Below are positions 35,124-43,988 of a stretch of DNA of 64,000 nt, piece after piece. The notes beneath the pieces were generated by a model. The model ran no database searches and had not been told where the DNA came from. It worked only from the letters and a program-made list of their open reading frames with translations. The stretch's first letter is position 1. The number at the start of each line of letters is the position of its first letter. The DNA is from Microcaldota archaeon. GTDB taxonomy: Archaea > Micrarchaeota > Micrarchaeia > Micrarchaeales > CABMGC01. The stretch is taken from positions 1-64,000 of the forward strand of contig DAHXNY010000003.1 of the NCBI GenBank assembly GCA_027365175.1, read 5' to 3'. The position numbers and the translations under genes were made by a program.

Positions 35124-36155
35124 TCAGTAGATGCTCTGGAGCGCCTCTAAGCGCATAGGCATAGCATTTGCATTGCTCTTGCGTTCGCCGAACTTCGCCT
35201 TCACTCCTGTAATTATTGACATTACCCTTATCTCCTCTCCGAGCTCAGGAAGCATCCTTGCGCCGAAGATGACGTTCGCATCTCCTGCAACGCCTTCTGT
35301 AACGCCGTTTGCTATCTCCGTAGCCTCGCTTATGGTCAGGTTTGCACCTCCGGTTATCTGTATGAGCGCTCCCTTTGCACCTTCATTCTCCACTGATAGC
35401 AGAGGATGTGCAAGAGTTGACTTTACAGCCTGTTCGACTCTGCCAGGGCCCTTTCCTGAGCCGAGGCTTATCACTGCCGTGCCTGTGTTCCTGACAACCG
35501 TGTTCAGATCTGCGAAGTCCAGGTTTATCAGGCTTGGGAAGTATATCGTGTCAGATATTCCCTTTACGGCATTGCCGGTTATATTGTCAACAAACTCGAA
35601 GGCCTTGTCCATAGGAAGGTTTGGCACATATGATAGGAGCTTGTCGTTCTCCACCACTATCGTGCAGTCCGCTTCCTTGTTCAGCCTGTCTATGCCCCAC
35701 TCTGCCTTTACCTTTCTGCTTCTCTCAAGTGCAAATGGGTATGTCACAGTTGCTATCACTGTTGCGCCGCACTCTCTTGCTATGTGAGCCACTATTGGAG
35801 CTGAACCTGTTCCTGTTCCTCCTCCCATGCCAGCAGCTACGAAGACCAGGCTGTAGCCGTCTAGGGCCTGCCTTATCTCCTCCTTGCTTACCTCTGCGCA
35901 TTTCTCAGCAACTTCTGGGAAACCTCCGGCTCCGAGTCCATTGGTTATGCTCTTTCCTATGAGCAGCTTCTTGTCGGCCTTGATTATGTTCAGATGTGCT
36001 ATATCCGTGTTTATGGCAATCTTGTCGGCGCTCTGCATGCCGTATCTTGATAGTCTGTTTACAAGGTTGCTACCCTGCCCACCGCAGCCTACTACCGCTA
36101 TCTTCGGTTTATAGGCATCATAGTCGAACTGCTCGTTTCCCATTCTTGCACCCAC
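35124..36155 (-). CDS. ftsZ: cell division protein FtsZ (paralog A)
   Basis: tubulin signature [17 protein letters not shown]. Confidence 0.96.
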   Translation of the reverse strand: MGARMGNEQFDYDAYKPKIAVVGCGGQGSNLVNRLSRYGMQSADKIAINTDIAHLNIIKADKKLLIGKSITNGLGAGGFPEVAEKCAEVSKEEIRQALDGYSLVFVAAGMGGGTGTGSAPIVAHIARECGATVIATVTYPFALERSRKVKAEWGIDRLNKEADCTIVVENDKLLSYVPNLPMDKAFEFVDNITGNAVKGISDTIYFPSLINLDFADLNTVVRNTGTAVISLGSGKGPGRVEQAVKSTLAHPLLSVENEGAKGALIQITGGANLTISEATEIANGVTEGVAGDANVIFGARMLPELGEEIRVMSIITGVKAKFGERKSNANAMPMRLEALQSIY

Positions 36156-36177
36156 TTATAATAAATATAAAGGGATC

Positions 36178-37227
36178 TCAAATGAGATCCAAGTCATACT
36201 TTGCAGGCTTTTCGTCGCTGTTGAACTTCCCGGCTATGCTTGCGCCCTTTACTCCTGTGACTATTGCCACTATCTCTATCTGGCCCTCGTAGCCTGGGAT
36301 TATTCTTGCGCCCCACTTTATGTTTGCCTTAGGGTCCATGCGCTCCGTGATTATTTCACCTGCGTGTATTGCGTCTCCGAGGCTCAGGTCCGATGCTCCT
36401 GATATGTGTATCAGTGCCCCCTTTGCATTCTCGAAGTCAACATCAAGCAGCTTGTTCTTTATCACGGCCTCTGCAGCTGCGGTAACCTTCTCGTTGCCCT
36501 TTCCTACCCCTACGGATATGAATCCAACGTCTCCGCTGCCCATGATTGACCTTACATCAGCAAAGTCTATGTTGATCAGGCTCGGCTGGGTTATCGTCCA
36601 TACGAGTCCTCCTATGGCCTTTGCCAGTATGTCATCTGCTACTGCAAATGCCTCATTCATTGGCAGGTTAGGAACCAGCTTCACCAGCCTGTTGTTGTCC
36701 AGGATTATGACGCTGTCGCTGAACTTCCTCAGCTTCTGAATACCCTCTTCTGCCTTTACCTTCCTTACCCTCTCAAGATCAAATGGGTATGTTACCATCG
36801 CGACTACTATAGCACCCTGTTCCTTTGCTATCTGAGCCACTACCGGCATCGCACCTGTTCCCGTTCCTCCTCCCATACCTGCGCACAGGAAGACCAGTTG
36901 TGCACCGTTTATTACCTCTTCTATTGCCTGCCTGTCAGCCTCTGCTGCCTTTGCTCCGACTTCAGGAGTTCCTCCGGCTCCGAGACCTCTTGTCAGGCTC
37001 TTTCCGATGAGGACCTTCTTTATCCGGTCATCAAGCATCTTGAAGTGCTGAACGTCCGTGTTAATTGCTACAAGGTCTGTGCCCTTAACACCGCTCTTCA
37101 GCAGTCTTTGTGCTGTGTTGTTGCCACCCCCGCCCACTCCTATGGTTACTATCTTTATCTGGGGTGTAGAGTTACTGTCCATCTCCTCGCTTTTATTCGC
37201 AAGAAACTCGCTAGAGAAATCTACCAT
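36178..37227 (-). CDS. ftsZ: cell division protein FtsZ (paralog B)
   Basis: [30 protein letters not shown]. Confidence 0.96.
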
Positions 37228-37432
37228 GCGATCGCCAGTTTATATAAACTACTAAATACGTTTAAATGTCTTTTGTATGGGAGTCAGTAATGGAACGGCT
37301 TATACTTTGATAAAAATCATATACTTAAATAAATTATTATTAGTGGAAGATAAGGATTTTTACGCAGAATCCGTACCGTAATGGGAATGAAAAACAAATT
37401 TTACCGACGTTAATTGCAATTTGGGATTAGTA

Positions 37433-39193
37433 TCAGGCTGATAGCTTGGACTTCCGCTGTATGCCGAACATCTCTATTACCTCTTCTGTCGTCGTGGCAT
37501 CGGAAGCGCTCTTGTCCTGCCTTATCCCATCGCTCACGAGCCTTGGGAATCTCAGGGCATATCCTATTCCGTCCTTTACCCCGCAGGTGTGCATGTTCGA
37601 CCTTGTTATCTCGTCTGCCCTTACAGTTACTACGTACTTCGGCTCGACCCAGAAGTCAGGCTCCACCACAGCGTTTACCCTTGCAGGCCTGTGCTTTGTC
37701 TTTATCTCATCAAGATCCTTCTTCAGCGATTTCATCTGCACCTCGCTGAATCCTGTGCCTATTCGCGTTATGGTTTCAAAGGCATCCTCTTTGTCATTGT
37801 AAACGCCTGCTAGGAGACCGCCGAATTTGAACTCGGCGCGCAGCCCTTTTCCTAGGAAGTATCCCAGTATCACGAGGTCAAGCGTGTCTGACAGTTCTCC
37901 CTTGTAGCTCCTCTTCAGCTTTATCCAGGAGAACTTCCTCGCGCCTGCCACATAGCTTGAGCCGAGGTCCTTTGCCATTATGCCCTCGAGACCGTCCTCT
38001 ATTACCGTATTGAAGTACTTGTCTATCGTCTTGGGATCGTCAGTGACTATCCTGTCGGAGAGTCGTATCATGCGCCTTTTCTTCAGCACGGATTCAAGCA
38101 GGTTCCTCCTCTCCGAGTAGGGCTTTGCCATCGTATCCCTGCCGTTAAGATACATTATGTCGAATGAGAAGAGGGTCAGGGGCATCTCCTTTGACATCTC
38201 CTCTACTCCATGCTTCCTCTTCCTCTGTATGGTCTCCTGGAAAGGGAGGAACTGGTCCGTGGCTTCGTTGTATCCTATTGCCTCTCCCTCTATTATTGCA
38301 GAGTCTGCCGATATCTCATCGAGTGCGGCGTCGACTATTTCCGGGAACATGGGAGTAAGCACCTCCAGGTTCCTCGAGTATATCTCAACCTTCTTCCTCT
38401 TCCTATCCACATGTATCTGCTGCCTTAATCCGTCGTACTTTGATTCTATGGCGCACCTTCCATGGGTCTTTTCCAGTATCTGCTCCGCAGTAGGAAGCCT
38501 CTCGGCAAGTGCGGGCCTTATAGGACTGAAGAGCTGCACCTCTATGCGCTCTATCCCTTTTATCCCATTCTCGGCCATGATCTCACCTATCCTCCCGAGG
38601 TCGCTGCAGATGTTGTATGCGTTCTCCAGCACAGGCTTTGACTCCCTGCTTCCGGTGAATGCCTTGGAAAGCGCTTCGAGAATGGTTGCATCGCCAAGGC
38701 CCAGCCTGAGCCTTCCGAGGGCGAATCTGGTAACGTATCTTGCTTCGAGAGGAGAGGAGGCTGAAAGAATCTCCATCAGCATCTTTATCTTCGTGTCCTG
38801 GCTGCCCTGCCCTCCGGTCTTCGCTATCTTGTGCATCGATTCGAAGACATCGTTTACTGTAAAGGACTTGGAACTTATCCTCTTCAGCTTTGACTTAGAA
38901 CAGAAATCCTCTGCCACTGCCCCAAGGTCTCCTGATTTCTTGTATGCCTGTATGACGGAATCTTTTGAATAGCCGGTAGCTGCAGCTATGGCCTGCTCGG
39001 CGAAGCTCTCAGCCAGCCCTATCACTACGCCCTCGAATGAAGGACTGAGAACTCCCTGCGTTATGTATATCAGGTGCCGAATCTCTCCGGGGGAGGATTT
39101 TGACAAAAGCTCCGAGAGCGTGTCTATCATCTCCAGCCTTGAGCTTGTGCCCTCGAGCTTCTCGTAATAAGCGGCAGTGTCCTTGAACAGCAT
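37433..39193 (-). CDS. lig: ATP-dependent DNA ligase (archaeal LigB type)
   Basis: adenylation motif AIESKYDGLRQQIHV, EGEAIGYN, EGIMAKDLGSSYVAGARKFSWIKLKR; start corrected to MLFKDTAAYY. Confidence 0.95.
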   Translation of the reverse strand: MLFKDTAAYYEKLEGTSSRLEMIDTLSELLSKSSPGEIRHLIYITQGVLSPSFEGVVIGLAESFAEQAIAAATGYSKDSVIQAYKKSGDLGAVAEDFCSKSKLKRISSKSFTVNDVFESMHKIAKTGGQGSQDTKIKMLMEILSASSPLEARYVTRFALGRLRLGLGDATILEALSKAFTGSRESKPVLENAYNICSDLGRIGEIMAENGIKGIERIEVQLFSPIRPALAERLPTAEQILEKTHGRCAIESKYDGLRQQIHVDRKRKKVEIYSRNLEVLTPMFPEIVDAALDEISADSAIIEGEAIGYNEATDQFLPFQETIQRKRKHGVEEMSKEMPLTLFSFDIMYLNGRDTMAKPYSERRNLLESVLKKRRMIRLSDRIVTDDPKTIDKYFNTVIEDGLEGIMAKDLGSSYVAGARKFSWIKLKRSYKGELSDTLDLVILGYFLGKGLRAEFKFGGLLAGVYNDKEDAFETITRIGTGFSEVQMKSLKKDLDEIKTKHRPARVNAVVEPDFWVEPKYVVTVRADEITRSNMHTCGVKDGIGYALRFPRLVSDGIRQDKSASDATTTEEVIEMFGIQRKSKLSA

Positions 39194-39250
39194 CTTAACC
39201 AATATCAAATCTGTTCTTATGTTTATATAGTTTCTCTGAAATACCATAAT

Positions 39251-39511
39251 ATGGCAAAGGAACCGTGCGAACATTTTGTTGGCATTGACAAAGATATAAA
39301 GGCAAAGAGTGAAGTCTGCGAGGAGTGCATAAAGGAGGGGACGCACTGGGTACAGCTTCGTGTCTGTTTGGTCTGCGGCCATGTAGGATGCTGTGATTCA
39401 TCCGTAGGAAGGCATGCGACAAAGCACTTCCAGGAAACAGGTCACGCTGCGATGGCGGCGCATCCCGGCAGAGAGTGGAGATGGTGCTACGTGCACAAGG
39501 ATTATTACTGA
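39251..39511 (+). CDS. UBP-type zinc finger protein
   Basis: CEHF...CEEC...WVQLRVCLVCGHVGCCDSSVGRHATKHFQETGHAAM. Confidence 0.93.
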   Translation: MAKEPCEHFVGIDKDIKAKSEVCEECIKEGTHWVQLRVCLVCGHVGCCDSSVGRHATKHFQETGHAAMAAHPGREWRWCYVHKDYY

Positions 39512-39596: not shown

Positions 39597-40739
39597 TTAC
39601 TCTTCGTTTATTATCTCATATATCTTATTGGCGAAGAAGCCCATGTTGCGCTCCTTCTTCTCTGGCACAAGTATGCCCTGCTTGACAAGCCTGTCCACTG
39701 CGCGTTTTGCAGTAGGGTATGTCGCGTTGATCGCATTCCTTGCATCTGCTATGGTTATGAATGGGTTCTTGAAGAGCTCATTCAGCACTATTCTTGATGA
39801 CTCTGAGGATTTTGAAGGGCCGAGCTTTTTCATGCACGCTTCCCTGTACTCGGAGAGCTTTGAAGCGGTGCGCACGGCCTTCTTGGCCTGGAAGTGCATA
39901 GCCTTAAGGAAGAACTTTATCCATGCCAGATAGTCGCCTGTCTTGCTTACGTGCAGTATCGTGTCGTAGTAGGATGCCCTGTCCCTCTCGAAGTACTCGC
40001 TCATGCATAGGCTGGGAAGCGAGAGGAGCCTGCTCTTCTGCAGATACACGGATATGAGCGCTCTTCCGGTCCTTCCGTTTGCATGCTCGAAGGGCCTTAT
40101 GGCCTCGAACTGGTAGTGCATAATTGCTATCTGGACTATCGGATGCACCGACTCATACTCCTGCATATAGTAAAGCGCGTTCTCCAGCAATGGCACTATT
40201 CTCTCCGGAGGCGGGGGCACGTATCTTGCTATAGCGGCCGGGGTATCTGGAGAACCAAGCCAGTTCTGCCTATTCCTTATTATCATATCCTTTTCATTTG
40301 TGCTGCCCGTAAGTGCCTTGTGGGCTCCGATTACCGTATTCATGCTTATGTCCCCGCGGCTTATCGCCGGTATGCAGCTCCTCAGAGCCTCTATATGGCC
40401 AATGGCCTCTTTTGCAGCCTTGGGATCCTTTATCGAGCGTTTTCCCCGCTCATACCTGAAGATATTGTCCAGGGTCTCCCGGTTTCCATGCAGCCTTGCA
40501 TTCTCCAGCGCCTCCTTTCTTGTCTGCAGTTCTGCAAATTCCGGGAATTCAGAGGATATTGCCTCGAGCTTCCCCAACTCGAAGCTTGTCTTTGCCAGAA
40601 GAGTTGTCGCCTCATCGTCAAATTTGATCTGCACAGGGAGCAGCCTCGGTACAAAGGCGTAGTAGTTGTTGTGTGCATTCTGTACGAATATGAGCTCTCC
40701 TGCCATACCATTGAAATCGCTGGGATTCACCACAGGCAC
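39597..40739 (-). CDS. Fic-family protein with degenerate catalytic motif, C-terminal winged helix
   Basis: FEAIRPFEHANGRTGRALISVYLQK and RKEALENARLHGNRETLDNIF. Confidence 0.88.
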   Translation of the reverse strand: MPVVNPSDFNGMAGELIFVQNAHNNYYAFVPRLLPVQIKFDDEATTLLAKTSFELGKLEAISSEFPEFAELQTRKEALENARLHGNRETLDNIFRYERGKRSIKDPKAAKEAIGHIEALRSCIPAISRGDISMNTVIGAHKALTGSTNEKDMIIRNRQNWLGSPDTPAAIARYVPPPPERIVPLLENALYYMQEYESVHPIVQIAIMHYQFEAIRPFEHANGRTGRALISVYLQKSRLLSLPSLCMSEYFERDRASYYDTILHVSKTGDYLAWIKFFLKAMHFQAKKAVRTASKLSEYREACMKKLGPSKSSESSRIVLNELFKNPFITIADARNAINATYPTAKRAVDRLVKQGILVPEKKERNMGFFANKIYEIINEE

Positions 40740-41154
40740 CGATTATTATATTAAAAGAATATATTTAAACCTTTACTAAATCAATATTTATCACAATATT
40801 AATCTGCAATAACGTATTGGAACTAAATATAAACACAATAAACATACTATAACTGACTACATACGATTATTATAGATAAATTAAGTTTTTATTAAATTAA
40901 TCTCATTTATAATTAATATAATGTAATTTTATTTGTTTTTACCCGCTTTTGTAGATTTTTTACTTAATATATTATAAATATATTGAAGATAATCGCATAT
41001 ATCACATTATTTCGATCTGAAGAAGCAGTGTTTCAATTGTTCGAATATAATTAAAGAAATATTGTTTATAATTAATATAAATTAATAATCAACATTTGAT
41101 TGATATTTTGATAGTTTATGTTAAATTATATGTGTATTAATTTAATATTACTCT

Positions 41155-41275
41155 GATACGCAGCTCGCACCTGGCTGTGTGGGACATGAGGTCTCTGGTG
41201 CGAATTAGGTGACATCCTCCCACCCCTGAAGGGAGCCATCTAAAGAGGGTGTGGGATTTCCCGCTCACGTTGTTA
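41155..41275 (+). ncRNA. structured GC-rich island, IS200/IS605 right-end / omegaRNA-like remnant candidate (strand inferred)
   Basis: stems TCGCACC(41165-71)/GGTGCGA(41197-203) and TCCCACCCC(41218-26)/GGGTGTGGGA(41247-56), then TTTCCCGCTCACG. Confidence 0.45.
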
Positions 41276-41474
41276 ATAGCAAATATATTAATTATATTGC
41301 TGATTTTTGTAGATATATAGCACTTTTTGATTTATTATATTAAATAATTAATCATTATATTTAATACAAACAATGAATCTAATTGAATTGCAGAGAACAT
41401 AGAAGCAGGAGACATAAACGTAAAGATATAGCATTGGGATTGGCAGTTTAGGATGGCTTATGAAGCGCGCCTGA

Positions 41475-43862
41475 TCAGACAATCCCTGTGTTTATGCTTA
41501 TGTTCATCTCAGTAGTGGCTCCTGAAGAGACGTTTACTGATTTTGGAATGTTGCGCAGACAGCTTATGTAGTGGCAATTGAGCATGCTTACCGAGTAAGA
41601 ACCCGCAGCCACCTGCTGTGAGTATGTACCATTTGCGCCAAGGGGGATTGTGTAATTGTAGGCGTTGTTAGTTGATATGAGTTCCAGTTTGAGATTTGAA
41701 TAGAGTGTATTAAGGTCTATACTGCCTGCACAGGTATTGCTGATAGATTCTACAGGGCATAATGGGCCTATCACCACCCTGCCCTGAATTATCCCGAAGC
41801 CGGTCTGATTCTGCGGAATTGTAGTCACAGTAGTCGTAGTAGATGTCAACGTATCGTTTATGCTGCTGTTAGACTGTTCGGTTGTATTCCGGGATACCGA
41901 GTATGTGGTCTTTATTGACAGCTGCCCGTAATACTGATAGCCAGGGGCCTTTATAGTGAGGACCGCAGCTCTTATCTTCTGGCCTGCCGTGCATACGAAG
42001 CAGTGTATGCTTCCTGAAGAGCAGACAGGGCACCTCCCAGGAATATACTCCATCACATATGCCGTCCCTAGGAGAGTAAATCCGGGAGTAAGTATGCTTA
42101 TGTTCTTAAGCTGATAAGCAGAATAGTAATCGTTATACGAACCTGAGAGCAACGGCAGGGTGTAGTTAGCAGTTCCGTTTATCGTTGATGTAAAGCCCTG
42201 CAAAGAGATATTGTATGAGGAATTGCCTGCTAGCACCTGCTCGTTCACCATGCTCACTCCGACAAGCTTTGAGGTATAGTTGCTTATGCTGCCTTCATCA
42301 GAAGCAGTGTAATTCGCATTTGCAATTCCTGAATGCTGCTGTCCGGCACCGTTCACCTTTATGCTGTAATTCTGGCTAGGTATGAGAAGTATCCTTGTTA
42401 CCCCTCTGAAGAATGGCAGTGAATCTGCCGCATATGGCAGTGGGCCTATCCCAAGAGTGCCGTTGAAGCGGAGGTCTGCTGAAGCGCCGGGCTTGACAGA
42501 CAGGCCTGTGAAGCTTCTGCACCCTATGAATGCACCAATCTCATCGCCGTGGGACTCTTCGCAGTTTGGCACATAATTGAATATCGGGAGTGAGAGTGTC
42601 CCGTTGTCAAGCACGATGAAATTAAGGTAATTGTTGAACTTGTTGACAAATGCTCCGGCAGCATTTGCTTCAAGCTCGCTCTGGTTCCTGGATTCTGCGT
42701 TTGCAGATATTGATATCGCACTCTTGCCTATGCACATTATCCCGACGCATGTTTTTGCTGTTGTTCCTGCATTAGAATTATCAGATATGGCTGATGTATA
42801 GCCCTGATAGCCAAGCCTTATCTCTTCCATTAAGCCATTAAGCTGCATATTTGTCAGATTGACAGTAGTGTTGCCGGTGTTCTTTACCTCTATAGACATC
42901 ATGGTCAAATTGCCTGAAGAGGCCAGAGTGGCATTAGTTATTATTATGCTGCTGTTTGATCTTATCCTGCGGACTGTGTCAGGGCTTATCCTTTCTACGT
43001 AGCCTATGCTCCTGGTGCTTGCCGCTTCTGATCTGCCTATGAATATGGCCTTGACATTGGGAACCATCACGAATATACTCTCATTGTTCTGCGAATATAT
43101 ACTGACTATTGTAGGGTTCATGTTTATCAGGGCACCTCCTATAGAGGAGTTGGAGCTTGAGTTTAGCTGCGCTTCCACGTAGCCCTGAGGCACAGTCACG
43201 TTGTATGTGGTGTTATCTATAGTTATGTTTGCAGCTGTTATGTTGAGCCTTAGGGCCTTTATCATACTGTAGTTCTTCACATTCAGGACGGCTATTGTCT
43301 TTGTAACATTGGTCAGGTTGAGAAGGTCGGCAGTGCCACTGGCGTTGAAGTACTCGAATGCAGAGGAATTTGCATAGAATAGGCCTAATGAAGAGTATCT
43401 TATCGTCAGTGATGAGGTTCCTGGAGGCACAAGAGGAGGATCCGTAAGCTGCACTACGAAGTTGCCCTGCAGGGAGGAGTTTGAATACTGCGAATTGAAT
43501 GAAGGAGGAGTTGTAGAGTAGTTTCCTGGATAGACTGGCGCCCTGCCATTGAATAGAAATATGCCAATAGCTGCTATCGCTATTATTACAAGTATGCCTA
43601 CTGCGAAAGCCCTTACCTTTGCAACATTGTAACCGTTGTCCTCAAGGCGCTTTTCGAATCCATTGTTGTATTCGTAGTACTTCCACTTCCTGCTATAAGG
43701 ATTCTCTATCTCCTTTATGGCGCCTATCTTCAGGAGCTCTTTTATGTGCTGGTTTGTAGTAGACTGGCCCAGACCCAGCTTTTCGGATATCTGAGTCATT
43801 GTCATAGGCTTCTCTTTTACCAGTCCTATTATCTTCTTCTTGCTTTCAAAGAGCTTGCTCAT
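41475..43862 (-). CDS. membrane-anchored wHTH protein with large extracellular domain
   Basis: N-terminal wHTH KPMTMTQISEKLGLGQSTTNQHIKELLKIGAIKE, TM VRAFAVGILVIIAIAAIGIFLF, then ~680 aa rich in N-x-S/T. Confidence 0.8.
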   Translation of the reverse strand: MSKLFESKKKIIGLVKEKPMTMTQISEKLGLGQSTTNQHIKELLKIGAIKEIENPYSRKWKYYEYNNGFEKRLEDNGYNVAKVRAFAVGILVIIAIAAIGIFLFNGRAPVYPGNYSTTPPSFNSQYSNSSLQGNFVVQLTDPPLVPPGTSSLTIRYSSLGLFYANSSAFEYFNASGTADLLNLTNVTKTIAVLNVKNYSMIKALRLNITAANITIDNTTYNVTVPQGYVEAQLNSSSNSSIGGALINMNPTIVSIYSQNNESIFVMVPNVKAIFIGRSEAASTRSIGYVERISPDTVRRIRSNSSIIITNATLASSGNLTMMSIEVKNTGNTTVNLTNMQLNGLMEEIRLGYQGYTSAISDNSNAGTTAKTCVGIMCIGKSAISISANAESRNQSELEANAAGAFVNKFNNYLNFIVLDNGTLSLPIFNYVPNCEESHGDEIGAFIGCRSFTGLSVKPGASADLRFNGTLGIGPLPYAADSLPFFRGVTRILLIPSQNYSIKVNGAGQQHSGIANANYTASDEGSISNYTSKLVGVSMVNEQVLAGNSSYNISLQGFTSTINGTANYTLPLLSGSYNDYYSAYQLKNISILTPGFTLLGTAYVMEYIPGRCPVCSSGSIHCFVCTAGQKIRAAVLTIKAPGYQYYGQLSIKTTYSVSRNTTEQSNSSINDTLTSTTTTVTTIPQNQTGFGIIQGRVVIGPLCPVESISNTCAGSIDLNTLYSNLKLELISTNNAYNYTIPLGANGTYSQQVAAGSYSVSMLNCHYISCLRNIPKSVNVSSGATTEMNISINTGIV

Positions 43863-43988
43863 ACCATAACACAGTAATAACATATGCAGTAAGAATTAAT
43901 AAACCTGAAGAATTGCATCGGTTTTGTTGCGGTTTTACCTCAGCATAGGTAAAAACCGTAGCTTTGCAAATGGTATGTAATCCGTTAG

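What the first reader, a model, noticed from the sequence alone, without database searches (positions are those of the whole stretch)
41155..41275. GC-rich structured island in an AT-rich gap: orphan IS200/IS605 end or omegaRNA-like RNA
Between about 40745 and 41400 the DNA is extremely AT-rich except for this ~120-bp block. It folds as two stems (TCGCACC/GGTGCGA and TCCCAC-CCC/GGG-T-GTGGGA). The string CATCCTCCCACCCCTGAAGGG...GGGATTTCCCGCTCACG is typical of IS605/tnpB right ends, where TnpB guide RNAs originate. No tnpA/tnpB ORF is nearby, so it is either a non-autonomous MITE/PATE remnant or a retained, repurposed RNA.
Basis: partly seen in the sequence, partly recalled or inferred. Interest (0 to 1): 0.7.

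Follow-up and report, generated by a model that had tools for sequence, protein, structure and literature searches.

The report
Collapsed 63-base IS605 transposon end
A 63-base scrap of a jumping gene, in which the two ends of an IS605/TnpB transposon have fused into a single hairpin, sits in an AT-rich spacer of a Micrarchaeota genome; it is an ordinary fossil of a kind already described in salt-loving archaea, here in a new lineage.

Summary
The GC-rich island is real but consists of two unrelated pieces. (1) 41209-41271, read on the minus strand, is a 63-nt "terminal-only" relic of an IS200/IS605-family transposon. Its left-end half is fused to the last ~20 nt of the right end, so one hairpin replaces two. 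It lies directly 3' of TTAAC, the sequence found 5' of nearly every copy. The same left and right ends flank tnpB elsewhere in this genome, and the left end precedes tnpA+tnpB in a related one. Two same-genus genomes have the same AT-rich spacer without the insert. (2) 41155-41208, including the TCGCACC/GGTGCGA stem, is host sequence: it aligns to both relatives, but the stem does not survive there. An omegaRNA reading is not supported: only the last hairpin of the parent's conserved 3' region remains. Shorter 47-nt single-hairpin relatives recur across Micrarchaeota. Chimeric hairpins (4 of 21 against 0 of 53 in intact ends) indicate repeated left-end x right-end recombination. Terminal-only PATEs of 52 bp with the same proposed origin were published for Haloquadratum in 2011, so this is a new member of a known kind.

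The parts
41209..41271 (-). Terminal-only PATE, 63 nt: AACGTGAGCGGGAAATCCCACACCCTCTTTAGATGGCTCCCTTCAGGGGTGGGAGGATGTCAC
   Evidence: Dispersed copies in own genome and relatives; absent from the orthologous spacer of G001 and G002
41272..41276 (-). TTAAC, the conserved sequence 5' of the left end (target / presumed TAM); not duplicated on the right
   Evidence: Present 5' of nearly all listed copies
41234..41271 (-). Left-end (LE) derived part, incl. GTGAGCGGGAAATCCCAC
   Evidence: Matches the LE that precedes tnpB at C22:39356-39417, - strand
41229..41233 (-). CCCTT shared by LE and RE: fusion zone
   Evidence: LE reads CCCTTTAGGGGTGGGATG, RE reads CCCTTCAGGGGTGGGAGGATGTCAC, window reads CCCTTCAGGGGTGGGAGGATGTCAC
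41209..41228 (-). Right-end (RE) derived tail CAGGGGTGGGAGGATGTCAC
   Evidence: Identical to the RE tail after the tnpB stop at C22:38027-38051
41218..41256 (-). Single fused hairpin TCCCAC...GTGGGA
   Evidence: DNA fold -7.7 kcal/mol, z -1.4; covariation in short-hairpin relatives
41155..41208 (.). GC-rich host core of the spacer, with the TCGCACC/GGTGCGA stem; not part of the element
   Evidence: Alignable gap-free in G001 and G002, stem not kept
40745..41400 (.). AT-rich spacer upstream of a Fic-family gene, conserved in the genus; insertion site
   Evidence: 78-79% identity over 406 bp in G001 and G002; partial in G003 and G005

Best explanation
41209-41271 (minus strand) is a terminal-only PATE. 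An IS605-family element that inserts 3' of TTAAC and ends in GTCAC gave rise to it: its left-end and right-end hairpins share a short direct repeat (CCCTTYAGGGGTGGGA), and a deletion between these repeats removed the core with tnpB and left one chimeric hairpin between TTAAC and GTCAC. SHOWN: the fused LE/RE make-up, the parental elements with tnpB in the same genome and tnpA+tnpB elsewhere, the empty site, and recurrent fusions in the family. INFERRED: that the deletion was repeat-mediated, and whether it happened in place (preferred) or before insertion. It probably does nothing now: with one hairpin, no genes and no closely related TnpA found in this genome, it is a fossil.
For: Own-genome repeats. 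LE directly before, and RE directly after, a frameshifted tnpB at C22 (Pfam). Cognate Y1 tnpA plus tnpB behind the same LE in G052, and the same LE with a 96% identical TnpA in G007. TTAAC 5' of nearly all copies. Empty site in G001 and G002. Graded deletion series of about 1.4 kb, 623, 351, 196, 177, 164, 63 and 47 nt. At the loop-closing pair, LE is A..T, C..G or T..A and RE is mostly G..C; minimal copies are LE-type (9), RE-type (7), chimeric LE5'/RE3' (4) or C..G (1); unpaired 4/21 against 0/53 in intact ends, Fisher p 0.005. Published precedent: PMC3119063.
Against: No strain pair was found with a full element and its collapsed form at the same site, so the deletion is not caught in the act. 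The clustered occurrence of 47-nt copies in G026 (8 exact; 10 listed) could also mean that collapsed units move.
Confidence: 0.92

Rival explanations
1. The collapsed single-hairpin element is itself a mobile unit, mobilised in trans by a Y1 TnpA, rather like a REP sequence, and arrived at this site already collapsed.
For: Several collapsed copies at different sites in one genome, all on TTAAC: 8 exact in G026, 10 listed there, three 63-nt copies here. The Haloquadratum authors suspected the same for a 52-bp PATE (PMC3119063).
Against: Collapsed copies within one genome carry different LE/RE crossover points (G026: LE-type, RE-type and chimeric), and the three copies here differ in the 3 nt after TTAAC (AAC, ATT, AAA) and in the CTTCA/CTTTA junction, which favours repeated in-place origin. 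Known Y1 TnpA dimers use two end hairpins (general knowledge). No close TnpA in this genome (best 35% identity).
Confidence: 0.2
2. Retained omegaRNA-like guide RNA: the element is transcribed from its minus strand and guides a TnpB with the host flank CTAATTCGCACC... as guide.
For: It ends in the parental RE terminus with a plausible guide position. One uninterrupted tnpB frame of another type exists in the genome (C23:85133).
Against: Parental elements conserve about 80 nt more upstream, with a second long predicted hairpin, mean identity 0.92-0.96; this is absent here. The tnpB copy with these ends is frameshifted. Rfam silent. The 'guide' side is host sequence and its stem is not conserved.
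Confidence: 0.03
3. The whole 41155-41275 block is one host non-coding RNA gene in the AT-rich spacer.
For: GC-rich island in an AT-rich spacer; the left part is alignable in the genus.
Against: Half of it is an insertion absent in G001 and G002; overall fold no better than shuffles; left stem not kept in relatives.
Confidence: 0.02

Closest known systems
Terminal-only PATEs of Haloquadratum walsbyi (HqIRS46 and ISHwa23 derivatives, 52 bp; PMC3119063)
   Same: IS605-type termini, no inverted terminal repeats, no target duplication, core lost between near-terminal palindromes that act as direct repeats, one palindrome left
   Different: Other lineage (Micrarchaeota), other end sequences, 47 or 63 nt; here chimeric hairpins document several crossover points
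IS200/IS605 family (IS605 with tnpA+tnpB; IS1341-type with tnpB only)
   Same: Subterminal hairpins, fixed 5' target (TTAAC), ends shared with tnpA/tnpB-bearing relatives
   Different: No gene and only one hairpin
PATE-like element of Halanaerobium hydrogeniformans (PMC7290912)
   Same: Ends-only IS605 derivative
   Different: That one keeps the whole right end and part of tnpB; this keeps only the RE tail
REP sequences with RAYT transposases
   Same: Single short hairpin unit, related to Y1 transposases
   Different: From general knowledge only; no RAYT link tested, and the ends are those of an IS605 element

Membership tests
IS605-derived terminal-only PATE | Ends shared with an IS200/IS605 element carrying tnpA and/or tnpB | tested here: met
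IS605-derived terminal-only PATE | No coding capacity, near-terminal palindrome(s), no inverted terminal repeats, no target duplication | tested here: met
   63 nt; one hairpin; TTAAC on the left only
IS605-derived terminal-only PATE | It is an insertion (empty site in relatives) | tested here: met
IS605-derived terminal-only PATE | Core removed between end repeats, leaving one fused palindrome | tested here: met
   Sequence make-up and recurrent chimeric hairpins; the event itself is inferred
IS605-derived terminal-only PATE | Can be mobilised by TnpA in trans | not testable with these tools
   Needs an excision assay
TnpB omegaRNA | Full scaffold of the parental 3' region | tested here: not met
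   Only the last hairpin and terminus remain
TnpB omegaRNA | Adjacent or cognate intact tnpB | tested here: not met
   None in the window; the best copy with these ends in the genome is frameshifted; assembly is 89% complete
TnpB omegaRNA | Transcribed RNA of defined 3' guide | not testable with these tools
   No RNA data
Intact IS605 right end | RE hairpin preceded by GGAAGCCCA and the conserved 3' region | tested here: not met
   Replaced by LE sequence

The most novel reading that the evidence does not exclude
Single-hairpin 47-63 nt units bounded by TTAAC and GTCAC are substrates in their own right for a Micrarchaeota Y1 transposase, so that one hairpin can serve as both left and right end; this would make them among the smallest known transposable units and change the two-hairpin view of IS200/IS605 transposition.
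Probability: 0.15. Interest if true: 0.55.

Novelty: new member of a known kind. Interest (0 to 1): 0.25.

Why it matters
It explains a conspicuous structured island without invoking a new RNA, and it extends terminal-only PATEs from haloarchaea to Micrarchaeota. The family gives a readable record of how TnpB elements die: left and right hairpins recombine, with mapped crossover points, and leave a short scar. Annotators of AT-rich archaeal spacers and omegaRNA searches can be misled by such scars.

Tried and rejected
Rfam at gathering and relaxed thresholds: nothing in the block. Treating 41155-41275 as one RNA: rejected by the fold control and the empty site. Left half as a separate repeat: no match. 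AT-rich spacer as replication origin because it is conserved and AT-rich: the only strong cdc6/orc1 hit is on another contig and GC skew shows no clear switch there; not pursued. Amplification of one collapsed founder: not favoured by differing junctions, not excluded. Own genome's Y1 tnpA genes as cognate: their loci carry none of these ends and are at most 35% identical to the cognate TnpA. Searches were argument errors; one search was a rejected report format.

Full report
WHAT IS THERE. The spacer 40745-41400 lies between a Fic-family gene (39597-40739, minus strand) and an 802-aa gene with an N-terminal winged-helix domain (41475-43883, minus strand). Its GC content is 8-30% except at 41140-41290, where it is 43-58%.

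TWO PIECES. A BLAST of the block against the window's own genome gives nine places, all confined to the right-hand part or its sub-parts apart from the window itself. Across 60 related genomes, 33 have matches, again almost all within the right-hand part. The left part 41145-41213 alone finds nothing convincing in 40 genomes (best 24 nt at E 0.02). Two same-genus genomes, G001 and G002, carry the same spacer: 78-79% identity over 406 bp and about 83% over 553 bp including the start of the Fic gene. The left GC-rich part 41155-41208 aligns there without gaps, but the TCGCACC/GGTGCGA stem is not kept, whereas the right part is missing from both. Joining the flanks of 41209-41271 gives the empty-site alignment. 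So the right part is an insertion and the left part is host sequence.

THE ELEMENT. On the minus strand it reads TTAAC | AACGTGAGCGGGAAATCCCACACCCTCTTTAGATGGCTCCCTTCAGGGGTGGGAGGATGTCAC | CTAATTCGC, i.e. 63 nt, 41271 down to 41209. In the same genome, at C22:38027-39425, a tnpB gene (OrfB_IS605 plus TNB domain, split by a frameshift) is preceded by TTAAC-AAC-GTGAGCGGGAAATCCCACACCCTCTTTAGAGGGCTCCCTTTAGGGGTGGGATGAAAGCGAAC and followed by GGAAGCCCATACCCTTCAGGGGTGGGAGGATGTCAC. The window element is the first sequence up to the second CCCTT and the second sequence from there on. In G052 the same left end precedes a Y1 tnpA, a small membrane-like ORF and tnpB (Pfam Y1_Tnp E 2e-39); G007 carries the same left end next to a TnpA 96% identical over 70 aa. 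This identifies the family as IS605-type of the IS200/IS605 family.

FAMILY AND ORIGIN. Nearly all of 69 listed copies have TTAAC directly 5' of the 3-nt spacer and GTGAG. Element lengths form a series: about 1.4 kb with tnpB, then 623, 351, 196, 177 and 164 nt with two hairpins (counted from GTGAG), then 63 nt (three in this genome) and 47 nt with one hairpin. A scan of one genome per species (84,980 species) found 21 stretches with the 47-nt type, 20 in Micrarchaeota MAGs and one in a contig binned as Marsarchaeota. The hairpin is under structural constraint: for 32 distinct short-hairpin sequences 94% of cells pair, with 31 cells changed on both sides, against 10.5 in shuffles and at most 5 in slid controls (the set mixes LE and collapsed copies, so related sequences inflate the count). 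LE and RE hairpins differ at the loop-closing pair (LE: 11 A..T, 14 C..G, 1 T..A; RE: 24 G..C, 2 C..G, 1 G..T). Collapsed copies are LE-type (9), RE-type (7), C..G (1), or broken in the one sense expected from a crossover inside the loop, LE 5' arm with RE 3' arm (4); unpaired 4 of 21 against 0 of 53, p = 0.005 (exact-pattern set, not corrected for shared ancestry). All three main kinds occur together in genome G026, so fusion has probably happened several times there. In G026 none of the listed long-hairpin elements is collapsed while ten short-hairpin copies are; the short LE is the one more similar to that genome's RE. This fits deletion between direct repeats.

FUNCTION. No evidence for a present function. 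The parental 3' region, where an omegaRNA would lie, is conserved for about 100 nt and predicted to hold two hairpins (14 elements; several are from one genome, G042, so conservation is partly shared ancestry). The window element has only the last hairpin, and its 5' arm comes from LE. No Y1 TnpA close to the cognate one was found in this genome (89% complete; best match 35% identity), and the three Y1 genes present do not carry these ends. The element is most likely an inert scar. It is not a plausible terminator by inspection (no T-run after the hairpin on either strand; not tested experimentally).

LITERATURE. The Haloquadratum walsbyi comparison (PMC3119063, section 30) describes terminal-only 52-bp PATEs from IS605-type transposons by repeat-mediated deletion between near-terminal palindromes, and raises the possibility that such short units are mobilised. 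A PATE-like ends-only element is known in Halanaerobium (PMC7290912). I found no report for Micrarchaeota in the open-access library searched; subscription papers were not searchable. Hence: new member of a known kind.

LIMITS. E-values and identities come from incomplete MAGs. Whether collapse preceded or followed insertion at this site cannot be decided. Statements on TnpA using two hairpins and on TAM/omegaRNA geometry are general knowledge of IS608/ISDra2, not tested here.

Noticed in passing
window 40745-41150 (with 41272-41400): The AT-rich spacer itself is conserved: 78-79% identity over 406 bp in two same-genus genomes and partly in G003 and G005, always upstream of the Fic gene, with AT-rich blocks around small GC-richer cores of diverging sequence. 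Function unknown; cdc6 is on another contig.
   Followed up: partly
L022 1481-2830 (G028) and L036 minus strand from 1481 (G038): An IS110-family element (DEDD_Tnp_IS110 and Transposase_20) sits in the hairpin loop of an end of this IS605 family; in L022 it splits what looks like a collapsed, 63-nt-type copy (RE tail GGTGGGAGGATGTCAC follows), and in G038 a related but broken element starts in the loop of a short-hairpin left end. Comparable to SMR-A elements that target PATE palindromes in Haloquadratum; a bridge RNA aimed at the loop could be sought.
   Followed up: partly
L019, L101, L104-L107 (G026 = LSA5.bin73): A 351-nt two-hairpin PATE present in many copies; its interior carries a TnpB C-terminus-like reading frame in inverted orientation.
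   Followed up: no
L018 2029-2283 (G052): The tnpA+tnpB element carries an extra 84-aa membrane-protein-like ORF between tnpA and tnpB.
   Followed up: no
G000 C29:36070-36199 and C27:1-767: A tnpB 3' end with RE runs off the end of C29, and an LE plus broken tnpB start runs off the start of C27: the two contigs may adjoin across one tnpB element.
   Followed up: no
window 35124-39382: Two adjacent ftsZ-like genes (by eye, not tested) next to an ATP-dependent DNA ligase; ftsZ-like, ligase and Fic order kept in part in G005 and G003.
   Followed up: no
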